Source: Belliella pelovolcani (GTDB lineage: Bacteria > Bacteroidota > Bacteroidia > Cytophagales > Cyclobacteriaceae). From it: a stretch of DNA of 64,000 bases. A program made the position numbers and the translations under genes. The notes beneath the pieces were generated by a model, which searched no databases, was not told where the DNA came from, and was given only the letters and a program-made list of their open reading frames with translations. Shown in pieces: positions 4,156 to 63,912 of this stretch (positions are counted from its first letter, which is position 1; every line of letters starts with the position of its first letter). The stretch spans positions 62,001-126,000 of the forward strand of contig NZ_FTOP01000005.1 in assembly GCF_900156785.1 (NCBI RefSeq), given 5' to 3'.

Positions 4156-5238
4156 ATGATCAGCGGTGGCGGTACTGGAGGGCATATTTACCCTGCGATT
4201 GCCATAGCCAATGCCTGGAAATCCAAATATCCAGACAGTGATTTTCTATTTGTGGGTGCCGAAGGTAAAATGGAAATGCAGAAGGTGCCAGAGGCTGGCT
4301 ACCGCATAGAGGGATTGAAAGTGGCTGGACTTCAGAGAAGTCTTAGCTTATCCAACTTAAGTTTTCCATTCAAGCTCCTAGGAAGTCTCAGCAGGGCAAA
4401 GCAATTGCTCAAAGATTTTCAACCAGATGTAGTCGTAGGTGTAGGAGGCTATGCAAGTGGTCCATTATTGTTTGCAGCGCAGAACAAAGGAATCCCAACA
4501 TTACTTCAGGAGCAAAATTCTTACGCAGGCTTGACCAATAAGCTTTTGTCCAAGAGGGCGAAGAAAATATGTGTGGCTTATCCGAATATGGAGCAATTTT
4601 TCCCTGCGGATAGACTGATCTACACAGGCAACCCAGTCAGAAAAGATATCATGGAGTTGGAGGGGAAAAGGGATCAGGCAATGGTACATTTTGGGCTTGT
4701 TGAAGAACGAAAGACGCTCTTGGTACTAGGAGGAAGTCTAGGAGCTCGTACGATCAATCAAGCTGTATTGACTGAGATGGGAGCTTTTGAGCGAGCTGGC
4801 TATCAGGTATTATGGCAGTGTGGTAAATTTTATTTTGCTGATATGTCTGCTCAAGTGGCTGCGTCTGGATTGAAGCATATCCACGTGAGGGAATTTATCC
4901 GAGAGATGGATTTGGCTTATGCTTCAGCAGATGTGGTGGTATCTAGGGCTGGAGCGCTTTCAGTATCTGAGTTGAGTTTGGTAGGCAAGCCGGTGGTGTT
5001 TATCCCTTCGCCCAATGTAGCCGAGGATCATCAGACCAAGAATGCCATGGCCTATGTCTCTCAAGACGCAGCCGTCTTACTCAAAGATGCAGATGCAATC
5101 GGAAGCTTGAAGGCTACTGTAGACAGCATCACCAATGATGAAGAGAAGGCCAAAGAATTGGCTCAAAACATAAAAAAATTAGCAAAACCAGAAGCTGCCG
5201 CGGCTATCGTGGAAGCCATAGCAGCATTGATCCCATGA
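4156..5238 (+). CDS. murG: Lipid II synthase MurG (start codon uncertain)
   Basis: GT-B fold glycosyltransferase at the inner membrane face that adds GlcNAc from UDP-GlcNAc to lipid I. Seen are the N-terminal loop GGGTGGHIYP, the NSYAGLTNK region, LLVLGGSLGARTIN opening the second domain and the donor-site stretch VVSRAGALSVSELSLVGKP. The first ATG is at 4156, but it would place the start only three residues before the glycine loop and remove the usual first beta strand. The frame stays open upstream to the stop at 4120-4122 and encodes KKKRTYSI directly before the Met, a credible native N terminus. No ATG, GTG or TTG lies in that stretch, so an ATC start (4129) is possible. The end overlaps murC by 4 bases. 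Confidence 0.95.
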   Translation: MISGGGTGGHIYPAIAIANAWKSKYPDSDFLFVGAEGKMEMQKVPEAGYRIEGLKVAGLQRSLSLSNLSFPFKLLGSLSRAKQLLKDFQPDVVVGVGGYASGPLLFAAQNKGIPTLLQEQNSYAGLTNKLLSKRAKKICVAYPNMEQFFPADRLIYTGNPVRKDIMELEGKRDQAMVHFGLVEERKTLLVLGGSLGARTINQAVLTEMGAFERAGYQVLWQCGKFYFADMSAQVAASGLKHIHVREFIREMDLAYASADVVVSRAGALSVSELSLVGKPVVFIPSPNVAEDHQTKNAMAYVSQDAAVLLKDADAIGSLKATVDSITNDEEKAKELAQNIKKLAKPEAAAAIVEAIAALIP

Positions 5239-6629
5239 AGTTGAATCACCTACATAGCGTCCATTTTCTTGGTATCGGTGGTATCGGTATGAGTGCCTTG
5301 GCGAGATACTTCAACCACTTGGGTATACCTGTGTCTGGCTATGATAAGACGCCTTCACCGCTTACGGAAAAGTTAGCTTCAGAAGGGATGCAAATCAGCT
5401 TTTTGGATAGCGTAGCTGAAGTGCCAGCTCGTGTTAAAGCCAATAAGGAAAACACGCTAATTGTGTGGACTCCTGCCATGCCAAAGGATTCTGAGCAGTT
5501 GAATTTCTTTAGAAATGAAGGCTATGCACTGCATAAGCGTGCAGCAGTTCTTGGGATGATTACAGCTAATATGCCGACCATCGCGGTCGCTGGGACTCAC
5601 GGTAAGACGACTACCTCGTCAATGGTGGCGCATCTATTGAAATCTGGTGGCGAAAATATCGCGGCATTCTTAGGAGGGATTACTCAAAACTATCAGAGCA
5701 ACCTGATTCTCCATGACGAGCAGGCTGGAGCATCTACTGTAGTGGTTGAAGCGGATGAATTTGATCGATCTTTCCTTCATCTACACCCCAATACAGCAGT
5801 GCTGACAAGTGCAGATGCCGATCATTTGGATATTTATGGTGATGATCAAGTGATGATGGATGGGTTTAGAGCTTTCTTAGACTTGATTGCCCCTGACGGG
5901 AAATTATACATTCAGTCCAAGGCTTACGAGAAATTGGCTAAGTCGGACTTTGGAACAGTCAAAGTAACCAAATACGGCGTCAAAGCTGGAGAAATACAAG
6001 CTGAGAACGTCAAGGCTTTGCCGGGGTATTTCAGTTTTGATTTTGTCAAAGGGTCAAAAAGAATCAATAGCCTTGAACTGAGAATGCCTGGCTTCCACAA
6101 TGTGGAGAACGCATTGGCAGCGATAGCGATTGCTTTGGATTACGGCTTGACTGAGGATAAAATTACAGCAGGATTGCGGTCATTCAGAGGAGTGAAGCGC
6201 AGGTTTGAAATACACGTGCAAGAGGATAGCCAGGTCTATATCGATGACTATGCACACCATCCAGAGGAGATATCAGCCTTTTTGGGATCGGTTAGGGCCA
6301 TGTATCCTTCAAAGCGACTGACAGCTATCTTTCAGCCGCACCTGTTCACAAGGACAAGGGACTTTGCAGCAGGATTTTCAGAAAGTTTGTCCTTAGCGGA
6401 TGAAGTGATTCTCTTGGATATCTATCCTGCAAGGGAATTGCCAATCGCAGGAGTGACTTCAGAAATGCTGCTAGCTGATATCAGTGCTGATAAGAAATCC
6501 TTGCAAAGTAAGGAAGCGATCTTGGATTACCTGAATGCCAATAGACCAGAAGTATTGGTCACCATTGGTGCAGGAGATATTGACAGATTAGTAGAACCGA
6601 TAGCTAAATGTATGAGAGATGAAAACTAG
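5235..6629 (+). CDS. murC: UDP-MurNAc:L-alanine ligase MurC
   Basis: Cytoplasmic ATP-dependent ligase adding the first stem-peptide residue, L-alanine, to UDP-MurNAc. The 464 residues show the N-terminal HFLGIGGIGMSALAR motif, the P-loop AGTHGKTTTSSMVA around 116, EADEFDRSF around 174, DADHLDIY and the C-terminal DDYAHHPEEI. Length fits the family. The ATGA overlap with murG and the 11-base overlap with ftsQ place it in the same transcript. Confidence 0.97.
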   Translation: MKLNHLHSVHFLGIGGIGMSALARYFNHLGIPVSGYDKTPSPLTEKLASEGMQISFLDSVAEVPARVKANKENTLIVWTPAMPKDSEQLNFFRNEGYALHKRAAVLGMITANMPTIAVAGTHGKTTTSSMVAHLLKSGGENIAAFLGGITQNYQSNLILHDEQAGASTVVVEADEFDRSFLHLHPNTAVLTSADADHLDIYGDDQVMMDGFRAFLDLIAPDGKLYIQSKAYEKLAKSDFGTVKVTKYGVKAGEIQAENVKALPGYFSFDFVKGSKRINSLELRMPGFHNVENALAAIAIALDYGLTEDKITAGLRSFRGVKRRFEIHVQEDSQVYIDDYAHHPEEISAFLGSVRAMYPSKRLTAIFQPHLFTRTRDFAAGFSESLSLADEVILLDIYPARELPIAGVTSEMLLADISADKKSLQSKEAILDYLNANRPEVLVTIGAGDIDRLVEPIAKCMRDEN

Positions 6630-16930: not shown

Positions 16931-17325
16931 CACTCTCTTACAAAAGGTTGAATCGCTTCAGAGGTCTTGATCTTTCCTGTGGCGCTTATCAATTTTAGCT
17001 GATATCCAAAAAAAATTACACTCTCCTATCACTCGAGGTAAATTTTATATGGGGATATAGGTGATAATCATCAATTAAATTTTTTCAATAAGTGAAAATT
17101 GTTTTTTGGTGATGAAAATGGCTTTTAGTAATAACAAGCTGTTTGAATAGGTAAATAAACAACTATTATGTTTTTTTAAACAATATAAAAAATTGAAATT
17201 ATTATAAAAAATATTTAGGGAGAACTTGTTTTTTAATTTCGGGGGGGTACTTTGAGCATCGAAAAGTCTTCGATATCTAATCTGAATACTTTTTAGGAGT
17301 GTGTGGAAAAACTTATCTAATTCTT
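16931..17325 (+). promoter_or_regulatory. AT-rich spacer with possible promoter for the small peptide gene
   Basis: About 395 bases, very AT-rich, with no convincing open frame. A tactttg word at 17249-17255 lies after an ttg about 20 bases upstream (near 17226), across a run of seven G. This is an imperfect match to the Bacteroidota TTTG/TAnnTTTG promoter and is the best candidate for driving the peptide gene at 17326. Confidence 0.3.
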
Positions 17326-17517
17326 ATGAAAAATTCAATTTTAAAATCAGGTTTAATCATGTTTGCCATGGTTGGGATGTTCTTCGTTAATGTGCAGGAT
17401 GCAAATGCTGTTCCTTGTACATTGAAAAAGATAAATGAAGGCGGGGCTACTGCAATATATGATTGTGGTGAGTATGGAGAAGTGACAGTTGCAAGAGGTA
17501 CTACTGTAAGAGCCTAA
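17326..17517 (+). CDS. Small secreted peptide with two cysteines
   Basis: A 63-residue product with a clear Sec-type signal: basic start MKNSILKS, a hydrophobic stretch GLIMFAMVGMFFV and a probable cleavage after DANA, leaving a mature peptide of about 35 residues beginning VPCTLKKINEGG. It has two cysteines (PCTL and YDCG) about 18 residues apart that could form one disulfide. The gene sits 48 bases upstream of a propeller-like lipoprotein gene, with a terminator-like hairpin between. Size, signal and placement recall the NVEAL-type small peptides found beside such lipoproteins in Bacteroidota, but the NVEAL motif itself is not exact (NVQDANA). Function unknown. The ATG at 17326 is chosen over upstream TTG/ATG codons because it begins the signal peptide. 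Confidence 0.7.
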   Translation: MKNSILKSGLIMFAMVGMFFVNVQDANAVPCTLKKINEGGATAIYDCGEYGEVTVARGTTVRA

Positions 17518-17523
17518 TAATTT

Positions 17524-17550
17524 TGGAGGGGAAACCCTCCACTTTTTTAC
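17524..17550 (+). terminator. Hairpin between peptide and lipoprotein genes
   Basis: tggaggg-gaaa-ccctcca followed by ctttttt: a 7-bp GC-rich stem with a GNRA-like loop and a short T-run. It looks like an intrinsic terminator placed inside the unit, which would make the peptide mRNA abundant and the lipoprotein mRNA a read-through product. Confidence 0.7.
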
Positions 17551-17565
17551 CATTAACAAAATAAT

Positions 17566-18654
17566 ATGAAAATTAAAATATATTCGTGTCTTCTTATTGT
17601 TATTAATTTGATTTCATGTCAACAGTCAGAAGAAAGAGTTTTCAAGATTGAATCAGGAAATTTAAAAATTATCGACTCGGTTCAAATCGATGATAGTGGA
17701 TTTAGTTTTTCATCAGTTTGGAATACCAAGATTTATAATGACACTCTTCTGGGATTTGGAGATGGTTCATTTTCCAGCATTAATATATTTCATACCAAAA
17801 CAGGAGATTTTCTGATGACCTTTGAATCAGATAGTATCGAAAGTTTTATAATTCCCAAAAAGAGTTATTCAAATTTTGCCGTAAATGGAGACAATTTCTT
17901 TCTTCTTAATCACCTTTTAAGTAAAGTATATGTCTTTACCTTAAATAAAGAATTTATTAGAACAGTTGATTTAAAATTTGAAAAGGAGTTATTTAAAGCT
18001 CAGTTTGACACTTTTTTTGAGTTTTATGATAATCAATTTTTTGTAAGTACAGAATATTCAGGTGGGACAATAAAAGAAACCTTTTCATATTCTCCTCTAC
18101 TTACAATTATTAATAGCAATGGAGAATTTAAATACAAAGTAGGGAATTATCCAAAGCCTTATACAGAGGGTAATTTGGTTTTAAGTGCTAATGAAAACAA
18201 GATTATTAAAGACGGAAAAATCTATATCCTGAATGTGGCTGGAGTTCCGATTTTGAAAGAGTATTTGCTTAATGGTGACTTGGACGGCGTGTATAAGTTG
18301 GAATCTGAACATCATGATCCTGAAATTGGATATTACACCAATGATCCATTTTCCGCTCCGCTAACTGATCAGTTCAATGGATTGGCTTCCGATCAAAATT
18401 CTTCTGAAAAAATATTTTATGCGACTTACAGTTCATTTGATACCCGTGATAGAGAATATGGTTTGGGTACTTATAAATGGATGTTGATGAAAATTGATCT
18501 AGAGAATATGACAATCAAAGAAAAGGAACTGGCGGGATCATGGCATTTAAATGAATTAAGAAAATTGATCCCTCAAGTCAAAGGAGACACAGTGAGTATT
18601 TTAATCAGGGAGAAAGATGAGAACTTGTATTTGAAGCGATTGATATTTGATTAA
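17566..18654 (+). CDS. Propeller-like lipoprotein
   Basis: A 362-residue exported lipoprotein: signal peptide ending in the lipobox INLISC (Cys19), then a protein made of recurrent beta-strand-rich segments, several with the ...I.N..G.F.....pattern of TolB/6-bladed propeller proteins. It resembles in general plan the DUF4221/6-bladed beta-propeller lipoproteins of Bacteroidota; the exact family cannot be fixed by eye. It lacks any enzymatic motif I recognise. It follows the small peptide gene and hairpin. Residues about 38-86 were recently duplicated downstream, in the decayed copy at 18688-18945. Low GC relative to the dcw genes suggests lineage-specific origin. Confidence 0.75.
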   Translation: MKIKIYSCLLIVINLISCQQSEERVFKIESGNLKIIDSVQIDDSGFSFSSVWNTKIYNDTLLGFGDGSFSSINIFHTKTGDFLMTFESDSIESFIIPKKSYSNFAVNGDNFFLLNHLLSKVYVFTLNKEFIRTVDLKFEKELFKAQFDTFFEFYDNQFFVSTEYSGGTIKETFSYSPLLTIINSNGEFKYKVGNYPKPYTEGNLVLSANENKIIKDGKIYILNVAGVPILKEYLLNGDLDGVYKLESEHHDPEIGYYTNDPFSAPLTDQFNGLASDQNSSEKIFYATYSSFDTRDREYGLGTYKWMLMKIDLENMTIKEKELAGSWHLNELRKLIPQVKGDTVSILIREKDENLYLKRLIFD

Positions 18655-18687
18655 AAGGGTAAGGTGTTTAGTTAATGTTTTGAGAAA

Positions 18688-18945
18688 ATGATAGTTAGAA
18701 TTATATGGGTTATTGTGTTTTGAATGGGGATATCAGGATGCAATCGACAACAAGAAAACATTTTTTAAATCATTCCAGGGGAGCTTACTATTATAGACTC
18801 TGTTCAAATAGATGATAGTGGATTTAGTTTTTCATCGGTTTGGAATACCAAGATTTATAATGACACTCTTCTGGGATTTGGAGATGGTTCATTTTCCAGC
18901 ATTAATATATTTCATACCAAAACAGGAGATTTTCTGATGACCTTT
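18688..18945 (+). pseudogene. Decayed partial copy of the propeller-like lipoprotein
   Basis: Starting from the ATG at 18688, the frame encodes a signal-like start, then an in-frame TGA (18721) and a later TAA, yet a lipobox-like GISGC is still readable. From about 18791 to 18945 the DNA is almost identical to 17669-17823 (offset 1122; exact over the last 100 bases or more), after which similarity stops abruptly. Only the first quarter of the gene is present. It is a truncated, disabled tandem duplicate, perhaps refreshed by gene conversion. Confidence 0.8.
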
Positions 18946-58685: not shown

Positions 58686-59828
58686 TTATTTACTCAAACT
58701 TAACCTGACAAACCCAAACTCATCTTCTAGATTGATGAATAACCAAAGCTTTCCGTCTTTCATGAAATAATCATTGTCAAATTCTGACAATTCCTTGATT
58801 TCACGTTCCATAAGAAAATTGAATTCGGTATCAAAAACACTTAGAAATACTTTTATTTCTTGGACTTCACCATAAGTTTCCGTTGACTTTTCTGTACCTT
58901 CCTCTGCATAGATTGTTTTCGTGGATAATCGATAATACTGCTTAGATTCAGGATCCCATACGGGCTTATAAAATTTCACTTGTTCGTAGAAATGTTTTAC
59001 CTCCTTTATTATTTCTTCAAGAGATCCAACCCTAATATTTGGAGGATTTACTCTTTTGGGAGTAAGAGTAGGGTTGTAGTCTACAAATTTCAAAGCTTTT
59101 TCTTTTAAGTCATAATATACGATCTCGTTAGAAAATTCATAACTAACAATAATCTTATTATTTTGATTTTGAAACTCTATACTAGGATCTACAATATTTC
59201 CAGACCGAGCACTTCTAATGCTCAAATCGCCATAAGATTTTTTTGAATTGAGGCCTAAACGGTTTACTTTATTTTCTTCTACAGACAAGACATCAAGATT
59301 AATTTCAACATTTTCATAATCGTAAGAAAGACCAAAAACAAGTAAATCTTCCGCTTCTGCTATGATTTGTCTCCTTGGATATTCTCGATAGACTTCTCCA
59401 TTTGAATTAATTGATTTTCTCCAATCTATTCTTTGAATTAAGTTTCCAGAATTATCAAAAATCCCAGATTCTACATATGATTTGATAAAAAAGCGATTAT
59501 CTTTTAACACATTGAAACCCACGAAAATTTCGCCAGTTCCATTTGGTCCTTCTTTTTCAAAACCAATTCTTTTTTTAAACTCAAGCTTTTCAAGATCTAT
59601 TTGATCTAAGGAATGATTAAAAGAGTTGTAAGAAAAAATTGTCCTCCCGTCAAGATCTAAATCAGAAAATGAAGCAAATCCCCATAAATCTAATATTTCA
59701 TTTTTGGAGTCAATTTTCACAGTATCTAATTGATAATAAAATACCTGAGGAGAGTCAAAGGTGCTTTTTTGCCCGCAAGAGTATAGAAGAATGGATATAA
59801 GCAGAAATTTAGACTTAAAGTGATCCAT
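58686..59828 (-). CDS. Propeller-like lipoprotein (array member 2)
   Basis: A 380-residue lipoprotein with lipobox LLYSCGQK. The body shows strand-turn repeats; the loop equivalent to the family motif is altered to EKEGPNGTGEIF. It is distantly related to its neighbours, at the level of shared architecture rather than easy alignment. Function unknown. It sits 32 bases after array member 3. Confidence 0.72.
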   Translation of the reverse strand: MDHFKSKFLLISILLYSCGQKSTFDSPQVFYYQLDTVKIDSKNEILDLWGFASFSDLDLDGRTIFSYNSFNHSLDQIDLEKLEFKKRIGFEKEGPNGTGEIFVGFNVLKDNRFFIKSYVESGIFDNSGNLIQRIDWRKSINSNGEVYREYPRRQIIAEAEDLLVFGLSYDYENVEINLDVLSVEENKVNRLGLNSKKSYGDLSIRSARSGNIVDPSIEFQNQNNKIIVSYEFSNEIVYYDLKEKALKFVDYNPTLTPKRVNPPNIRVGSLEEIIKEVKHFYEQVKFYKPVWDPESKQYYRLSTKTIYAEEGTEKSTETYGEVQEIKVFLSVFDTEFNFLMEREIKELSEFDNDYFMKDGKLWLFINLEDEFGFVRLSLSK

Positions 59829-59860: not shown

Positions 59861-60937
59861 TTACCTCAGTTTGACAATACCAATTATAGGGTTAAGTTCC
59901 TCCTTTGATCTATTAGAGAATTTTGCTGTTTTGATATAAAAGAATAAATCGTTTTTTAAGTCTAATGGTCTTAGAATGACAGGATCCTTTTTAGAATCTA
60001 AGATTCCATTTTTGGCTACAAAACTCTCACCGCTTACCTTATTTTGAATAAATAACCTTCTTTGACGTTCCTGGTCATATTCACAAATTAGGTATGAATT
60101 TGAGTTCAATATGTTTAATATTTGTAATTCCTTAAATCCATCATCATCAATAACTTGTTTTTTTTCAAAGTTTAATTTTATGACTGGCTGTAGATCTTTT
60201 TCGACTATTTGATATACCGTATCTCGTAGTAGATTTTCTCTTGTTAAGACAGGGAAATAGAGAAATGTCCCATCTTTATTCTCTGAGATGTAATGCATAT
60301 ATTGGTAATTCCCCACCATTTCTTCTTTTAGAAAGACTGACTTTACAGGAATTGTAAACTCTATTTCCAAATCCGAAGAGGCCTTTCTCAAGAATGCTTC
60401 GTTTGTAAACCCATCTTCAATTTTGTTACTGTAGGTTTTTAAAAACATGTATAAATTTCCTTCGCTGAAATGAATATAGTCTGTTCCATGCGATAGCTTG
60501 ACCTCTTTTTTGAAATTGAAAAATTTATCATAAATCAATATTCGACTATCAGAAGCGATATATATATTTCCTGATTTAGGGTCTATTGCAAATGTTACTA
60601 TACCATTGTACTCACCAGGTCCATCCCCTTGATTTGAAATCTTATCAACTAGTTTTCCTCCAAGGTCAAAAATTAAAATTTTGTTTATGTCCGCTACAAA
60701 TAGGTGGCTTTCATATAATTTGACATCACGAACTGTTGATAGTAAAGAGTTTTCACTTGTTTCTAGTTGTAATTCTTTAGACCATTCTGATAAATCAGAA
60801 ATATTTATAATATCATCAGATTGCGAAGGAACAGTATAGGAAGTCAATTCATATTCAATAGGGGCAGAGCAACCAACAATCGAAGAATAAATACTGACAA
60901 TGGCAATTATAATGTTGATAGTATATGATTTATACAT
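59861..60937 (-). CDS. 6-bladed beta-propeller lipoprotein (array member 3)
   Basis: A 358-residue lipoprotein with signal and lipobox SSIVGCSA. The start of the mature domain (INISDLSEWSKELQLETSE) and the NQGDGPGEYNGIV motif with FAIDPKSGNIYIAS are the clearest 6-bladed propeller (DUF4934-like) features in the window. Several ILIYDKFFNFKKEVKL-type blades follow. It is separated by 155 bases from the paralogue pair upstream, so it probably has its own promoter. Role unknown. Confidence 0.78.
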   Translation of the reverse strand: MYKSYTINIIIAIVSIYSSIVGCSAPIEYELTSYTVPSQSDDIINISDLSEWSKELQLETSENSLLSTVRDVKLYESHLFVADINKILIFDLGGKLVDKISNQGDGPGEYNGIVTFAIDPKSGNIYIASDSRILIYDKFFNFKKEVKLSHGTDYIHFSEGNLYMFLKTYSNKIEDGFTNEAFLRKASSDLEIEFTIPVKSVFLKEEMVGNYQYMHYISENKDGTFLYFPVLTRENLLRDTVYQIVEKDLQPVIKLNFEKKQVIDDDGFKELQILNILNSNSYLICEYDQERQRRLFIQNKVSGESFVAKNGILDSKKDPVILRPLDLKNDLFFYIKTAKFSNRSKEELNPIIGIVKLR

Positions 60938-61092: not shown

Positions 61093-62217
61093 TCATTTCG
61101 TAATCTGATAAACCCCATACCGCACAAAATCCTCTTCTTCATCTGGATTGATCAACTTTACCAGGATGGAATTATTGGGCATGGCTATTTTGATTTGTCC
61201 ATGTGGGATTTCTAGGTCTTTACTGAGCTGTTTCTCTTCGTCAAAGATGATGATGCGATGATAATTTGGGTCTTTAGAAGGTCTATAATATTGGTCTTCC
61301 TTTATTTTTGCTTCAAAGATGTTCTTTGGTATTTCCTTGAAATAGTCCAAAACGATTAATCCTCCGTCTAGTTGAAACAAAGCTGAATTTTGAGATGCGA
61401 GGGAATAGAACCCAGCATTTGATAAATTTTCCCGAGAAATGGGGGATTTCTTAAAACTGCCGAACTCCCCATGGTTTATCTTTATTTTTGATATTGTTTT
61501 TGAGGTCTGTAAGTCAATGACAGTTATTTCATCATCAAAAGTTGAAGTCACTAAAAGCTGATCTTTCTTTTTATTCATTGTAAAGATCGGGTTATACATG
61601 GCTTTTATGGAAATATCTAGATGCTTGTATATTGGTCTTTCAGAAATTGGAGCTAAATAATACTCTTTTCCAGATTTCATATCAAACAGCTCAATCAAAC
61701 TCTGATTATCGAAGCTTTTTACACTCATAAATCTTGCTGTTCTCGAAGGGTAAGTGGCAAATACTAAATTCTCTTTTCCATTTCCTTTGTAAAAGTAAAC
61801 GGGTGCGGGAGAATTGAAAAAAGTGAGAAATGGATTCCTTAGTGCAAATTTCTTACTTTCTTTGAATTCTAAATTTCTATCGTAAATTAGAAGTTGATGG
61901 GTAGTGATCACCCAAATATTACCACCTTCACCGAATCCCAAAAAATTCATTGCTGTATTGACCTGACCTGGTCCTTGGCCTTGAAGTTCTTTTCTCTTTA
62001 ATATGGTTCCCTTTTGATCTAATAAAATTACAACGAAGTCTTTACTACCCCTTTCAAAAGCTATATATTGCTTTTTGATTGGATCATAATCCACAATCTC
62101 TACTGAACTCAAAGAATTGATTTGAAACTCGCTAGTTTTCCGAAGTTTATACTGAGCAAAGGAATAGGTGGAGAAAAATGTCAGCATTAAGCATGTAGTA
62201 ATGAAATTGATTTTCAT
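61093..62217 (-). CDS. Exported propeller-like protein, paralogue A
   Basis: A 374-residue protein with a Sec signal (MKINFITTCLMLTFF...SFAQ) and no lipobox, followed by GQGPGQVNTAMNF (propeller loop) and blade-like segments. It is paralogous to the protein encoded at 62611-63735: first about 45 and last about 60 residues are nearly identical even in DNA, while the centre differs considerably. The start at 62217 is supported by the paralogue. It lies directly downstream of a small Cys-rich peptide gene, with a hairpin between, forming a unit. Confidence 0.75.
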   Translation of the reverse strand: MKINFITTCLMLTFFSTYSFAQYKLRKTSEFQINSLSSVEIVDYDPIKKQYIAFERGSKDFVVILLDQKGTILKRKELQGQGPGQVNTAMNFLGFGEGGNIWVITTHQLLIYDRNLEFKESKKFALRNPFLTFFNSPAPVYFYKGNGKENLVFATYPSRTARFMSVKSFDNQSLIELFDMKSGKEYYLAPISERPIYKHLDISIKAMYNPIFTMNKKKDQLLVTSTFDDEITVIDLQTSKTISKIKINHGEFGSFKKSPISRENLSNAGFYSLASQNSALFQLDGGLIVLDYFKEIPKNIFEAKIKEDQYYRPSKDPNYHRIIIFDEEKQLSKDLEIPHGQIKIAMPNNSILVKLINPDEEEDFVRYGVYQITK

Positions 62218-62245
62218 AAGCCGATATATCATTTAGAATTTACAA

Positions 62246-62273
62246 ATAAGCTGACCGTCAACAGTCAGCTTAT
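62246..62273 (-). other. Hairpin between peptide and propeller genes
   Basis: ataagctgac (62246-62255) and gtcagcttat (62264-62273) form a perfect 10-bp stem with an 8-nt loop. No T-run on the minus strand, so more likely an mRNA processing or stability element than a terminator. The corresponding site in the second unit (near 63762) has decayed. Confidence 0.6.
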
Positions 62274-62280
62274 ATAAATA

Positions 62281-62529
62281 TCAAAGTAGCTCTGGATCTT
62301 CGCTTTCTCCACAGTTGCAGGTTACATTTTCTTCGTCTGGGCAGTAAAATCTACGTGTACTTAAGGTACAATCATTTACAGTCATAGAGCGTTGCCAGCT
62401 TTCATTACATCTAATTTCGCATGATCCAGCATTATCCAAAGAAGCTGATCCACTACCTACAATTGTTGCCAACTGACTTCTCTGGAGCATTTCTCCTGTA
62501 GAAAGCCCCAATTTTTCTAAATTTATCAT
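62281..62529 (-). CDS. Small Cys-rich peptide with double-glycine-like leader
   Basis: An 82-residue product without a hydrophobic signal. The N-terminal part INLEKLGLSTGEMLQRSQL then ATIVGSGSAS resembles leaders of peptides exported by peptidase-containing ABC transporters (L/I-rich helix ending in a GG/GS-type site). The remainder has six cysteines (SCEIRC, NDC, FYC, TCNC) and an acidic tail ESEDPELL, so a disulfide-bonded or modified core of about 45 residues is likely. It heads a peptide-hairpin-propeller unit. No modification enzyme or transporter is in the window. Function unknown; a RiPP-like or structural peptide are both possible. Confidence 0.65.
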   Translation of the reverse strand: MINLEKLGLSTGEMLQRSQLATIVGSGSASLDNAGSCEIRCNESWQRSMTVNDCTLSTRRFYCPDEENVTCNCGESEDPELL

Positions 62530-62610
62530 AATTTTAATTGTTTTAATGATTGTTATGATATTCCGATCATTTTAAAGCATCCGGGATTTCTGCCTTTTTA
62601 TTATTTGCAT

Positions 62611-63735
62611 TCATTTTGTAATCTGATAAACCCCATACCTCACAAAATCCTCTTCTTCATCTGGATTGATCAACTTTACCAGGATGGAATTATTGGGCAT
62701 GGCTATTTTGATTTGTCCATGTGGGATTTCTAGGTCTTTGCTGAGCTGTTTCTCTTCGTCAAAGATGATGATGCGATGATAATTTGGGTCTTTGAAATGG
62801 TGATAAAATGGATCTTCAGTGATTTTTTTCTCAAAAGTCCCGTATGGAATTTCTTTGACATAGTTCAAGATAATAAGTCCTCCATCTAGCTTTATGATTT
62901 TCAAATTCAAAGAAGCTAACGTATGAGGAGGGTAGCTAGGTAAGGTTTTGATAGATATGGGTAATTTTTTGAAACTCCCAAAATCTCCATGGTTGATGTT
63001 AATTTTTGATATGGAATTACCTGTGAGTAGGTCTATTATAGTTATTTCATTATCTAGAGAAGCAGTGATATACAATTTGTTTTTTTCTTTATCCTGTGTG
63101 AATACAGGTCTATATAAGGACTTGATAGAATTGTCTAAGTCTTTAGATATTGGCCTGTTTCTTATCGGGACAAGAAAATAATTTTGGTTATTAGATAAGT
63201 CATGGAGTTCCATCAAATGTTGAGATCTTAAGTCTTTTACACTTGTAAATCTAGCGGTATTTGAAGGGTAGGTTCCAAAGACAAGTTCATTCTTGGACTT
63301 ATCCTTGTAAAAAAATATTGGAGATTCAGCTAATCTATATGTAAAAAATGCATTGCTATTGACATATTTAACAGCGGTTTTGAAATTCAAGTTTTTATCG
63401 AAAGTAAGCAATTGGTTTGGCGTGATTACCCAAATGTCTTTTTTATCAGAATATCCTAGGGCATTCATTGCTGAATTAAATTGACCAGGGCCCTGTCCCA
63501 TCAGATTTTTTTTCTGGAGGATGTTCCCTTTGTCATCAAGAATCAATACAACAAAACCCTTGCTTTCATTTTCATATCCCAAATACCGCTTATACACAGG
63601 ATCATAATCCACAATCTCTACTGAACTCAAAGAATTGATTTGAAACTCGCTAGTTTTCTGAAGTTTATACTGTGCAAAGCAATTGGTGGAGAAAAATGTG
63701 AGTATTAAGCATGTAGTAATGAAATTGATTTTCAT
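62611..63735 (-). CDS. Exported propeller-like protein, paralogue B
   Basis: A 374-residue paralogue of the protein at 61093-62217 with the same type of signal (MKINFITTCLILTFF) and propeller loop MGQGPGQFNSAMNALG. The 5' about 160 bases and 3' about 180 bases are almost identical to paralogue A, the middle about half identical at the amino-acid level. Upstream lies a decayed copy of the Cys peptide gene, and the 3' flank leads into the intact peptide gene of the first unit. Confidence 0.75.
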   Translation of the reverse strand: MKINFITTCLILTFFSTNCFAQYKLQKTSEFQINSLSSVEIVDYDPVYKRYLGYENESKGFVVLILDDKGNILQKKNLMGQGPGQFNSAMNALGYSDKKDIWVITPNQLLTFDKNLNFKTAVKYVNSNAFFTYRLAESPIFFYKDKSKNELVFGTYPSNTARFTSVKDLRSQHLMELHDLSNNQNYFLVPIRNRPISKDLDNSIKSLYRPVFTQDKEKNKLYITASLDNEITIIDLLTGNSISKININHGDFGSFKKLPISIKTLPSYPPHTLASLNLKIIKLDGGLIILNYVKEIPYGTFEKKITEDPFYHHFKDPNYHRIIIFDEEKQLSKDLEIPHGQIKIAMPNNSILVKLINPDEEEDFVRYGVYQITK

Positions 63736-63798
63736 AAGCCGATATATAATTTAGAATTTACAAATAAGCTGACCGTCAGTAGTTAGTATCCAAAAACA

Positions 63799-63912
63799 TC
63801 AAACTAGCTCTGGATCTTCACTTTCTCCACAGTTGCAGGTATTTCTGTTAAATCTAACTCTCTCAAAGTACGATTGCTTATAAGGCTTAGAATAGAAAGA
63901 CTTGTTTATTGA
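63799..63912 (-). pseudogene. Decayed copy of the Cys-rich peptide gene
   Basis: The last 14 codons before the TGA at 63801 read TCNCGESEDPELV, matching the end of the intact peptide (TCNCGESEDPELL). Upstream the frame diverges and meets an in-frame TAG at 63915-63913. The leader portion is not found before the window edge. It lies in the same place relative to paralogue B as the intact peptide does to paralogue A. Confidence 0.65.

What the first reader, a model, noticed from the sequence alone, without database searches (positions are those of the whole stretch)
61093..63912. Two consecutive peptide - propeller units at locus B, one intact and one decaying
Reading the minus strand: decayed peptide, propeller paralogue B, intact six-Cys peptide, hairpin, propeller paralogue A. 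Positions of peptide and propeller are the same in both units, and intergenic DNA is also alike, so the whole unit was duplicated. The peptide and its propeller thus move as one unit, which supports a functional pairing.
Basis: partly seen in the sequence, partly recalled or inferred. Interest (0 to 1): 0.75.

Follow-up and report, generated by a model that had tools for sequence, protein, structure and literature searches.

The report
Cysteine-rich peptides with matched propeller partners
In a family of environmental bacteria, small exported cysteine-rich peptides are each encoded with their own matching propeller-shaped envelope protein, and unpaired propeller genes collect in arrays, a pattern that looks like secreted peptide toxins and their immunity proteins; the window holds one such intact pair and a hybrid orphan.

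Summary
The described objects are real: on the minus strand, a 45-nt peptide tail (63843-63799), propeller B, an intact 82-aa six-Cys peptide, a hairpin, and propeller A. The reading "whole unit duplicated" is only partly right. The units match at 96-98% only at the ends; the middle has about 60% DNA identity and saturated dS. Propeller B's middle is 92% identical to a Belliella aquatica orphan and only 53% to A, so B is a mosaic and its peptide tail may have arrived with the exchanged end.

"Peptide and propeller are a pair" is strongly supported. In 76 of 397 Cyclobacteriaceae genomes I found a C39-like/VKOR/thioredoxin fusion. In the closer relatives it sits in cassettes: fusion gene, GG-leader Cys-rich peptide, hairpin, propeller, C39 ABC exporter, HlyD. 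Over 47 non-redundant pairs the peptide core predicts the propeller type (42/47; shuffles mean 8.9, maximum 19), while the leader does not (6/47). Orphan propellers are common and often lie in peptide-free arrays.

Best explanation: a secreted disulfide-rich peptide with a cognate envelope immunity protein, plus orphan-immunity arrays. Toxicity and protection are untested. The window genome lacks the fusion and a dedicated exporter, so its locus is probably now an immunity array with a leftover peptide.

The parts
63799..63843 (-). Remnant: last 14 codons and stop of a six-Cys peptide gene (NTCNCGESEDPELV*)
   Evidence: direct reading of the sequence; scored as a peptide fragment (G000:C27:125805-125843, 92% identity)
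62611..63735 (-). Propeller B (374 aa, signal peptide): ends like propeller A, middle 92% identical to a B. aquatica orphan propeller
62281..62529 (-). Intact peptide precursor, 82 aa: GG-type leader ending in GS, core C37-x3-C41...C54...YC63...C71-x-C73
   Evidence: all six Cys invariant in the 11 aligned sequences; dN 0.265 / dS 1.04 against the relative in G003
62248..62271 (-). Intercistronic hairpin AAGCTGACTGTTGACGGTCAGCTT between peptide and propeller A
   Evidence: hairpins at this position are general
61093..62232 (-). Propeller A (379 aa, signal peptide), cognate partner of the six-Cys peptide
   Evidence: AlphaFold pLDDT 87.9; best fold match 3s9j, DUF4221
59861..60937 (-). Orphan propeller, probable lipoprotein, DUF5128 type
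   Evidence: Pfam PF17170 E 1.8e-22; relatives paired with peptides in other genomes
58686..59828 (-). Orphan propeller, probable lipoprotein, DUF4221 type
   Evidence: Pfam PF13970 E 9.1e-32; relative next to a CLERKCGS..CC peptide in L062
57532..58671 (-). Orphan propeller-like gene, probable lipoprotein, 'Prop4' type
   Evidence: one paired relative in L114; no Pfam match

Best explanation
The pair is one unit of a polymorphic peptide / partner cassette. A precursor with a conserved double-glycine leader and a variable Cys-rich core is (in complete cassettes) recognised by a C39-like/VKOR/thioredoxin fusion protein that forms disulfides in the core, cleaved and exported by a C39-type ABC transporter with an HlyD protein, and released as a disulfide-stabilised peptide that acts on related bacteria. 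The adjacent propeller, exported to the envelope by a signal peptide, binds that particular core and protects the producer. The hairpin between the two genes probably sets more peptide than partner. Cassettes exchange by homologous recombination in VKOR, C39 and propeller ends. Partner genes that lost their peptide are kept as arrays giving protection against foreign peptides. In the window the exporter and fusion gene are gone, so locus B is mainly such an array, with one intact leftover peptide. Shown: anatomy, cassette context, core-partner co-variation, hairpin, orphan arrays, mosaic structure, predicted propeller fold. Inferred: disulfide formation, export, antibacterial action, binding, immunity.
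For: Complete cassettes, one with two tandem peptide-propeller pairs in one operon (G006:C103 = L065; also G049:C6 = L062), with domains C39-like + VKOR + thioredoxin, C39 ABC, HlyD. Fusion gene in 76/397 family genomes, none in the window genome. Core nearest neighbour has the same propeller type in 42/47 non-redundant pairs against shuffle mean 8.9, max 19; leader 6/47; Mantel within types 0.86 (PropA), 0.60 (DUF4221), 0.49 (DUF5128), each 0 of 1999 permutations, leader about 0. Orphans: 83 orphan and 55 paired propellers; 40/83 orphans but 1/55 paired lie directly beside another propeller; 46/55 paired but 16/83 orphans are within 3 kb of VKOR or C39. Peptide-free arrays in Belliella hold only partner-type genes; two of these (CarboxypepD_reg-like and thioredoxin lipoprotein) have relatives behind their own GG peptides in Algoriphagus. 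Hairpin 39/49 against 4/32, 3/16 and 0/13 in control gaps.
Against: No toxicity or protection data exist for any member. Position between peptide and exporter also fits a folding or export helper. G003 keeps an intact peptide with a truncated propeller, although its exporter is truncated too. Some partners are thioredoxin-like or CarboxypepD_reg-like proteins, unusual for immunity proteins. The window genome has no VKOR match and only one C39 transporter, in a grasp-with-spasm cluster on another contig, so the window peptide may not be exported.
Confidence: 0.55

Rival explanations
1. The propeller is a dedicated periplasmic folding, carrier or export partner of its peptide, not an immunity protein.
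For: Gene order fusion-peptide-propeller-exporter; signal peptides; core-specific co-variation would also arise from a client-specific chaperone.
Against: Many orphan propellers in peptide-free arrays away from VKOR and C39; related VKOR + GG-peptide loci in other genera lack a propeller (L142, L146, L148); the partner can be a different fold.
Confidence: 0.2
2. The peptides are signals and the propellers their envelope sensors or scavengers.
For: Core-specific pairing; propellers kept without peptide could listen to neighbours.
Against: No kinase or regulator was seen recurring in the cassettes (not tested systematically); VKOR and LanC-like genes and highly variable Cys-rich cores resemble antimicrobial rather than signal loci.
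Confidence: 0.12
3. One reading: one recent tandem duplication of a whole peptide-propeller unit, then decay of one peptide.
For: Same order and spacing; 96-98% identity at both ends.
Against: Middle region saturated in dS; B's middle belongs with a B. aquatica orphan at 92%, against 53% to A; the remnant lies inside the homogenised end. A duplication followed by replacement of the middle of one copy is not excluded.
Confidence: 0.05
4. Chance neighbours: an abundant propeller family with unrelated small ORFs.
For: Propellers are abundant and often without a peptide.
Against: Same order in many genera, invariant six Cys, co-variation absent for the leader, hairpin specific to this gap.
Confidence: 0.03

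Closest known systems
Double-glycine-leader bacteriocin / microcin operons (C39 ABC exporter, HlyD, immunity gene)
   Same: GG leader, small core, C39 ABC exporter and HlyD in complete cassettes, partner gene directly downstream, hairpin after the peptide gene
   Different: Fusion of C39-like, VKOR and thioredoxin domains in the operon; 350-400-aa beta-propeller partner; many core types with matched partner types; arrays of partners; no activity shown
Orphan immunity arrays of Bacteroidales (AID / rAID, against T6SS effectors; PMC12247911)
   Same: Arrays of partner genes without their toxin, diverged from cognate copies, in Bacteroidota
   Different: Partners belong to exported peptides, not T6SS effectors; no recombinase tested here; protection untested
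Bacteroidetes graspetide / grasp-with-spasm clusters (PMC8939145, branch 5)
   Same: GG precursors, C39 exporter, HlyD, an associated lipoprotein; the window genome has one such cluster with a propeller lipoprotein (L080)
   Different: VKOR cassettes lack ATP-grasp and SPASM genes, apart from one mixed-looking locus (L118); that paper does not mention propellers
Tse1/Tsi1 (PMC3391265)
   Same: Periplasmic immunity protein with a (partial) beta-propeller fold
   Different: Tsi1 is a three-sheet partial propeller that inhibits a T6SS peptidoglycan hydrolase; relation by sequence not tested
NVEALA peptides (PF14055) and TolB_like propellers (PF15869) of Bacteroides (the link between the two is from memory, a lead)
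   Same: Small Sec-exported Cys-containing peptide near a propeller; locus A of the window and L077 look like this
   Different: No NVEALA match in 198 family genomes; locus B uses a GG-type leader

Membership tests
GG-leader peptide exported by a C39 transporter | Leader with conserved hydrophobic pattern ending in GG or equivalent | tested here: met
   Leader profile E 3.4e-13 for the window peptide (the profile was built with it included); it ends in GS, relatives in GG
GG-leader peptide exported by a C39 transporter | C39 ABC exporter in the same cluster | tested here: not met
   Not in the window genome's locus: single C39 gene, on contig C9. Met in relatives (L062, L065)
TIGR04149 natural product precursor | NCBIfam model above cut-off | tested here: not met
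   Window peptide: no match; four relatives 17.8-20.7 bits against cut-off 25
DUF4221 / 6-bladed beta-propeller | Sequence model match for propellers A and B | tested here: not met
   No Pfam match to either family
DUF4221 / 6-bladed beta-propeller | Beta-propeller fold | tested here: met
   AlphaFold pLDDT 87.9; Foldseek best hit 3s9j, DUF4221, E 1.5e-10, TM 0.59-0.62; a prediction, not a solved structure
Toxin-immunity pair | Adjacent genes with matched specificity | tested here: met
   Core-partner co-variation
Toxin-immunity pair | Partner found without toxin more often than the reverse | tested here: met
Toxin-immunity pair | Peptide harms sensitive cells and partner protects | not testable with these tools
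   Needs experiment
NVEALA (PF14055) | Pfam match | tested here: not met

The most novel reading that the evidence does not exclude
An undescribed class of polymorphic, disulfide-bonded peptide toxins in Cyclobacteriaceae, matured by a leader-binding C39-like/VKOR/thioredoxin fusion, with beta-propellers (and sometimes other folds) as matched immunity proteins, recombining cassettes and orphan-immunity arrays.
Probability: 0.5. Interest if true: 0.82.

Novelty: new variant of a known kind. Interest (0 to 1): 0.7.

Why it matters
Beta-propeller genes of the DUF4221/DUF5128 kind are abundant in Bacteroidota without a known job. The core-partner match gives a concrete, testable job to many of them. 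A survey of polymorphic toxins stated that beta-propellers had not been found among immunity proteins (PMC3482391); a full propeller as immunity protein for a small peptide would be new, with only the partial propeller Tsi1 (PMC3391265) as a precedent that I found. The cassettes also hold dozens of core types of unexplored Cys-rich peptides together with the gene that most likely neutralises each.

Tried and rejected
Whole-unit tandem duplication in its simple form: rejected by the mosaic identity profile and the middle-region tree. NVEALA family for the peptides: no match. TIGR04149 membership: below cut-off. Fold search with the peptide model: nothing significant, pLDDT 58, core about 72. 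Sequence search of PDB with the propeller profile: nothing significant. A first leader regular expression missed many peptides, the window's own included, and was replaced by a profile. Paper searches for NVEALA and for grasp-with-spasm found nothing; those pairing VKOR with bacteriocin and 6-bladed propeller with bacteriocin gave single off-topic papers.

Full report
Observation. The window is G000:C27:62001-126000 of a 4.1-Mb genome. Its genus is most likely Belliella (Cyclobacteriaceae, from the named near relatives; inference). On the minus strand the order is: peptide tail 63843-63799, propeller B 63735-62611, peptide 62529-62281, hairpin 62271-62248, propeller A 62232-61093, then three more propeller-type genes (DUF5128 type 60937-59861, DUF4221 type 59828-58686, 'Prop4' 58671-57532) and truA on the plus strand. 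Beyond 64000 there is no further unit.

The two units are mosaic. In 50-nt bins they share 90-100% at 62242-62093 and 61242-61093 but about 60% in between; dS is 0.09-0.13 at the ends and saturated in the middle. In the middle, A and B share 53% of residues, B and an orphan of B. aquatica 92% (support 100/100), and A sits elsewhere. So propeller B carries the ends of A around a middle from another lineage. The peptide remnant lies within the A-like end, so it may have arrived with that exchange rather than by decay in place (inference).

Pairing in relatives. The peptide and the propeller are adjacent in the same order in Anditalea (L064/L155), Arthrospiribacter (L062/L179), Cecembia (L112/L176), several Algoriphagus, a Cyclobacterium MAG (L182), and G003 at the same chromosomal site. 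The six Cys are invariant. Complete cassettes show what the locus probably once was: a fusion of about 523 aa of a C39-like domain, VKOR and thioredoxin, then peptide, propeller, C39 ABC transporter, HlyD. The Pfam C39 match of the fusion starts at profile position 17-25, so it probably lacks the catalytic Cys region and may only hold the leader (inference). The fusion occurs in 76 of 397 family genomes; none was found in the window genome, whose only C39 transporter lies in a grasp-with-spasm cluster. G003, at the same site between truA and DUF2911, keeps the fusion gene and an intact peptide beside a truncated propeller and a truncated C39 gene.

Specificity test. From 84 distinct GG-leader peptides I took those with a long partner directly downstream and reduced them to 47 non-redundant pairs. 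The nearest peptide by core has the same propeller type in 42 of 47 cases (shuffled labels: mean 8.9, maximum 19); by leader in 6 of 47. Core and propeller distances correlate within PropA (0.86), DUF4221 (0.60) and DUF5128 (0.49), each above all 1999 permutations, while leader and propeller do not. The leader acts as the control for host ancestry; it is not a full correction for phylogeny. Types were assigned by best score to seeds I chose.

Hairpin. In gaps between peptide and propeller, 39 of 49 fold with z below -2 (median -3.5). Control gaps: VKOR to peptide 4 of 32, propeller to propeller 3 of 16, propeller to C39 0 of 13. Shuffles kept base composition only.

Orphans. Of 138 distinct propellers of at least 300 aa, 55 have a peptide upstream and 83 do not; 40 orphans but one paired propeller abut another propeller; 46 of 55 paired but 16 of 83 orphans are within 3 kb of VKOR or C39. 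In B. aquatica (G001), B. calami (G002) and B. alkalica (G005) peptide-free arrays also contain a CarboxypepD_reg-like and a thioredoxin-like lipoprotein gene; relatives of both follow their own GG peptides in Algoriphagus. The arrays therefore consist of partner-type genes. Arrays of G002, G005 and the window lie beside truA; that of G001:C1 lies elsewhere. Paired and orphan states alternate in the propeller tree: 11 changes, at least 8 forced by supported branches. Which genomes were sampled depends on the VKOR and propeller anchors, so the proportions are not family-wide rates, and the looser 'PropA' label takes in distant paralogues.

Mechanism. The anatomy fits a secreted disulfide-rich peptide with a cognate envelope protein. 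Retention of partners without peptide, partner replacement by other folds, and the existence of VKOR/GG-peptide loci without propellers in other genera favour immunity over a maturation role. The AlphaFold model of propeller A is confident (pLDDT 87.9) and its best solved match is a DUF4221 propeller from Bacteroides vulgatus. The window peptide has dN 0.265 and dS 1.04 against its G003 relative, which points to purifying selection on a short alignment of 80 codons, but with no exporter or fusion gene in its locus its present export is doubtful.

Known context. I found no paper in the searched library that describes these cassettes; the library is open-access only. PMC3482391 states that beta-propellers were not found among immunity proteins of polymorphic toxins; Tsi1 is a partial propeller (PMC3391265); orphan immunity arrays in Bacteroidales are described in PMC12247911; PMC8939145 reports uncharacterised lipoproteins in graspetide loci, whose relation to the propellers I did not test.

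Noticed in passing
window 17299-18937: Locus A: a short Sec-type peptide (NVQDANAVPCTLKK...) followed by a 362-aa propeller-like protein without Pfam match, then a second broken copy of the start of that protein (18812-18937).
   Followed up: partly
L080 (G000:C9, 6.6 kb): Grasp-with-spasm cluster (TIGR04192, TIGR04193 above cut-off) with the genome's only C39 ABC transporter and a propeller lipoprotein at 5074-6243.
   Followed up: partly
L139, L142-L151: VKOR-fusion homologues in other genera, several beside GG-type peptides and C39/HlyD genes, without a propeller next to the peptide.
   Followed up: partly
L122 7104-8871, L125 5373-7140, L127 6201-8025: A distinct peptide type (CC[IV]H.R...GYCC.SC) followed in all three loci by a 480-aa lipoprotein with a C-terminal thioredoxin domain.
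   Followed up: partly
L161 4556-6316, L169 6722-8413: Peptide type with YMIRSCN motif followed by a CarboxypepD_reg-like protein and a thioredoxin-like protein.
   Followed up: partly
L112, L113, L114, L117: Truncated C39 and VKOR gene pieces between tandem peptide-propeller pairs, like scars of cassette exchange by recombination.
   Followed up: no
L073, L115, L116, L118, L141: LanC-like genes downstream of HlyD in several cassettes, suggesting further modification of some peptides.
   Followed up: no
L077 9935-14537: Sec-type Cys-containing peptides next to TolB_like (PF15869) propeller lipoproteins, a parallel peptide-propeller arrangement.
   Followed up: partly
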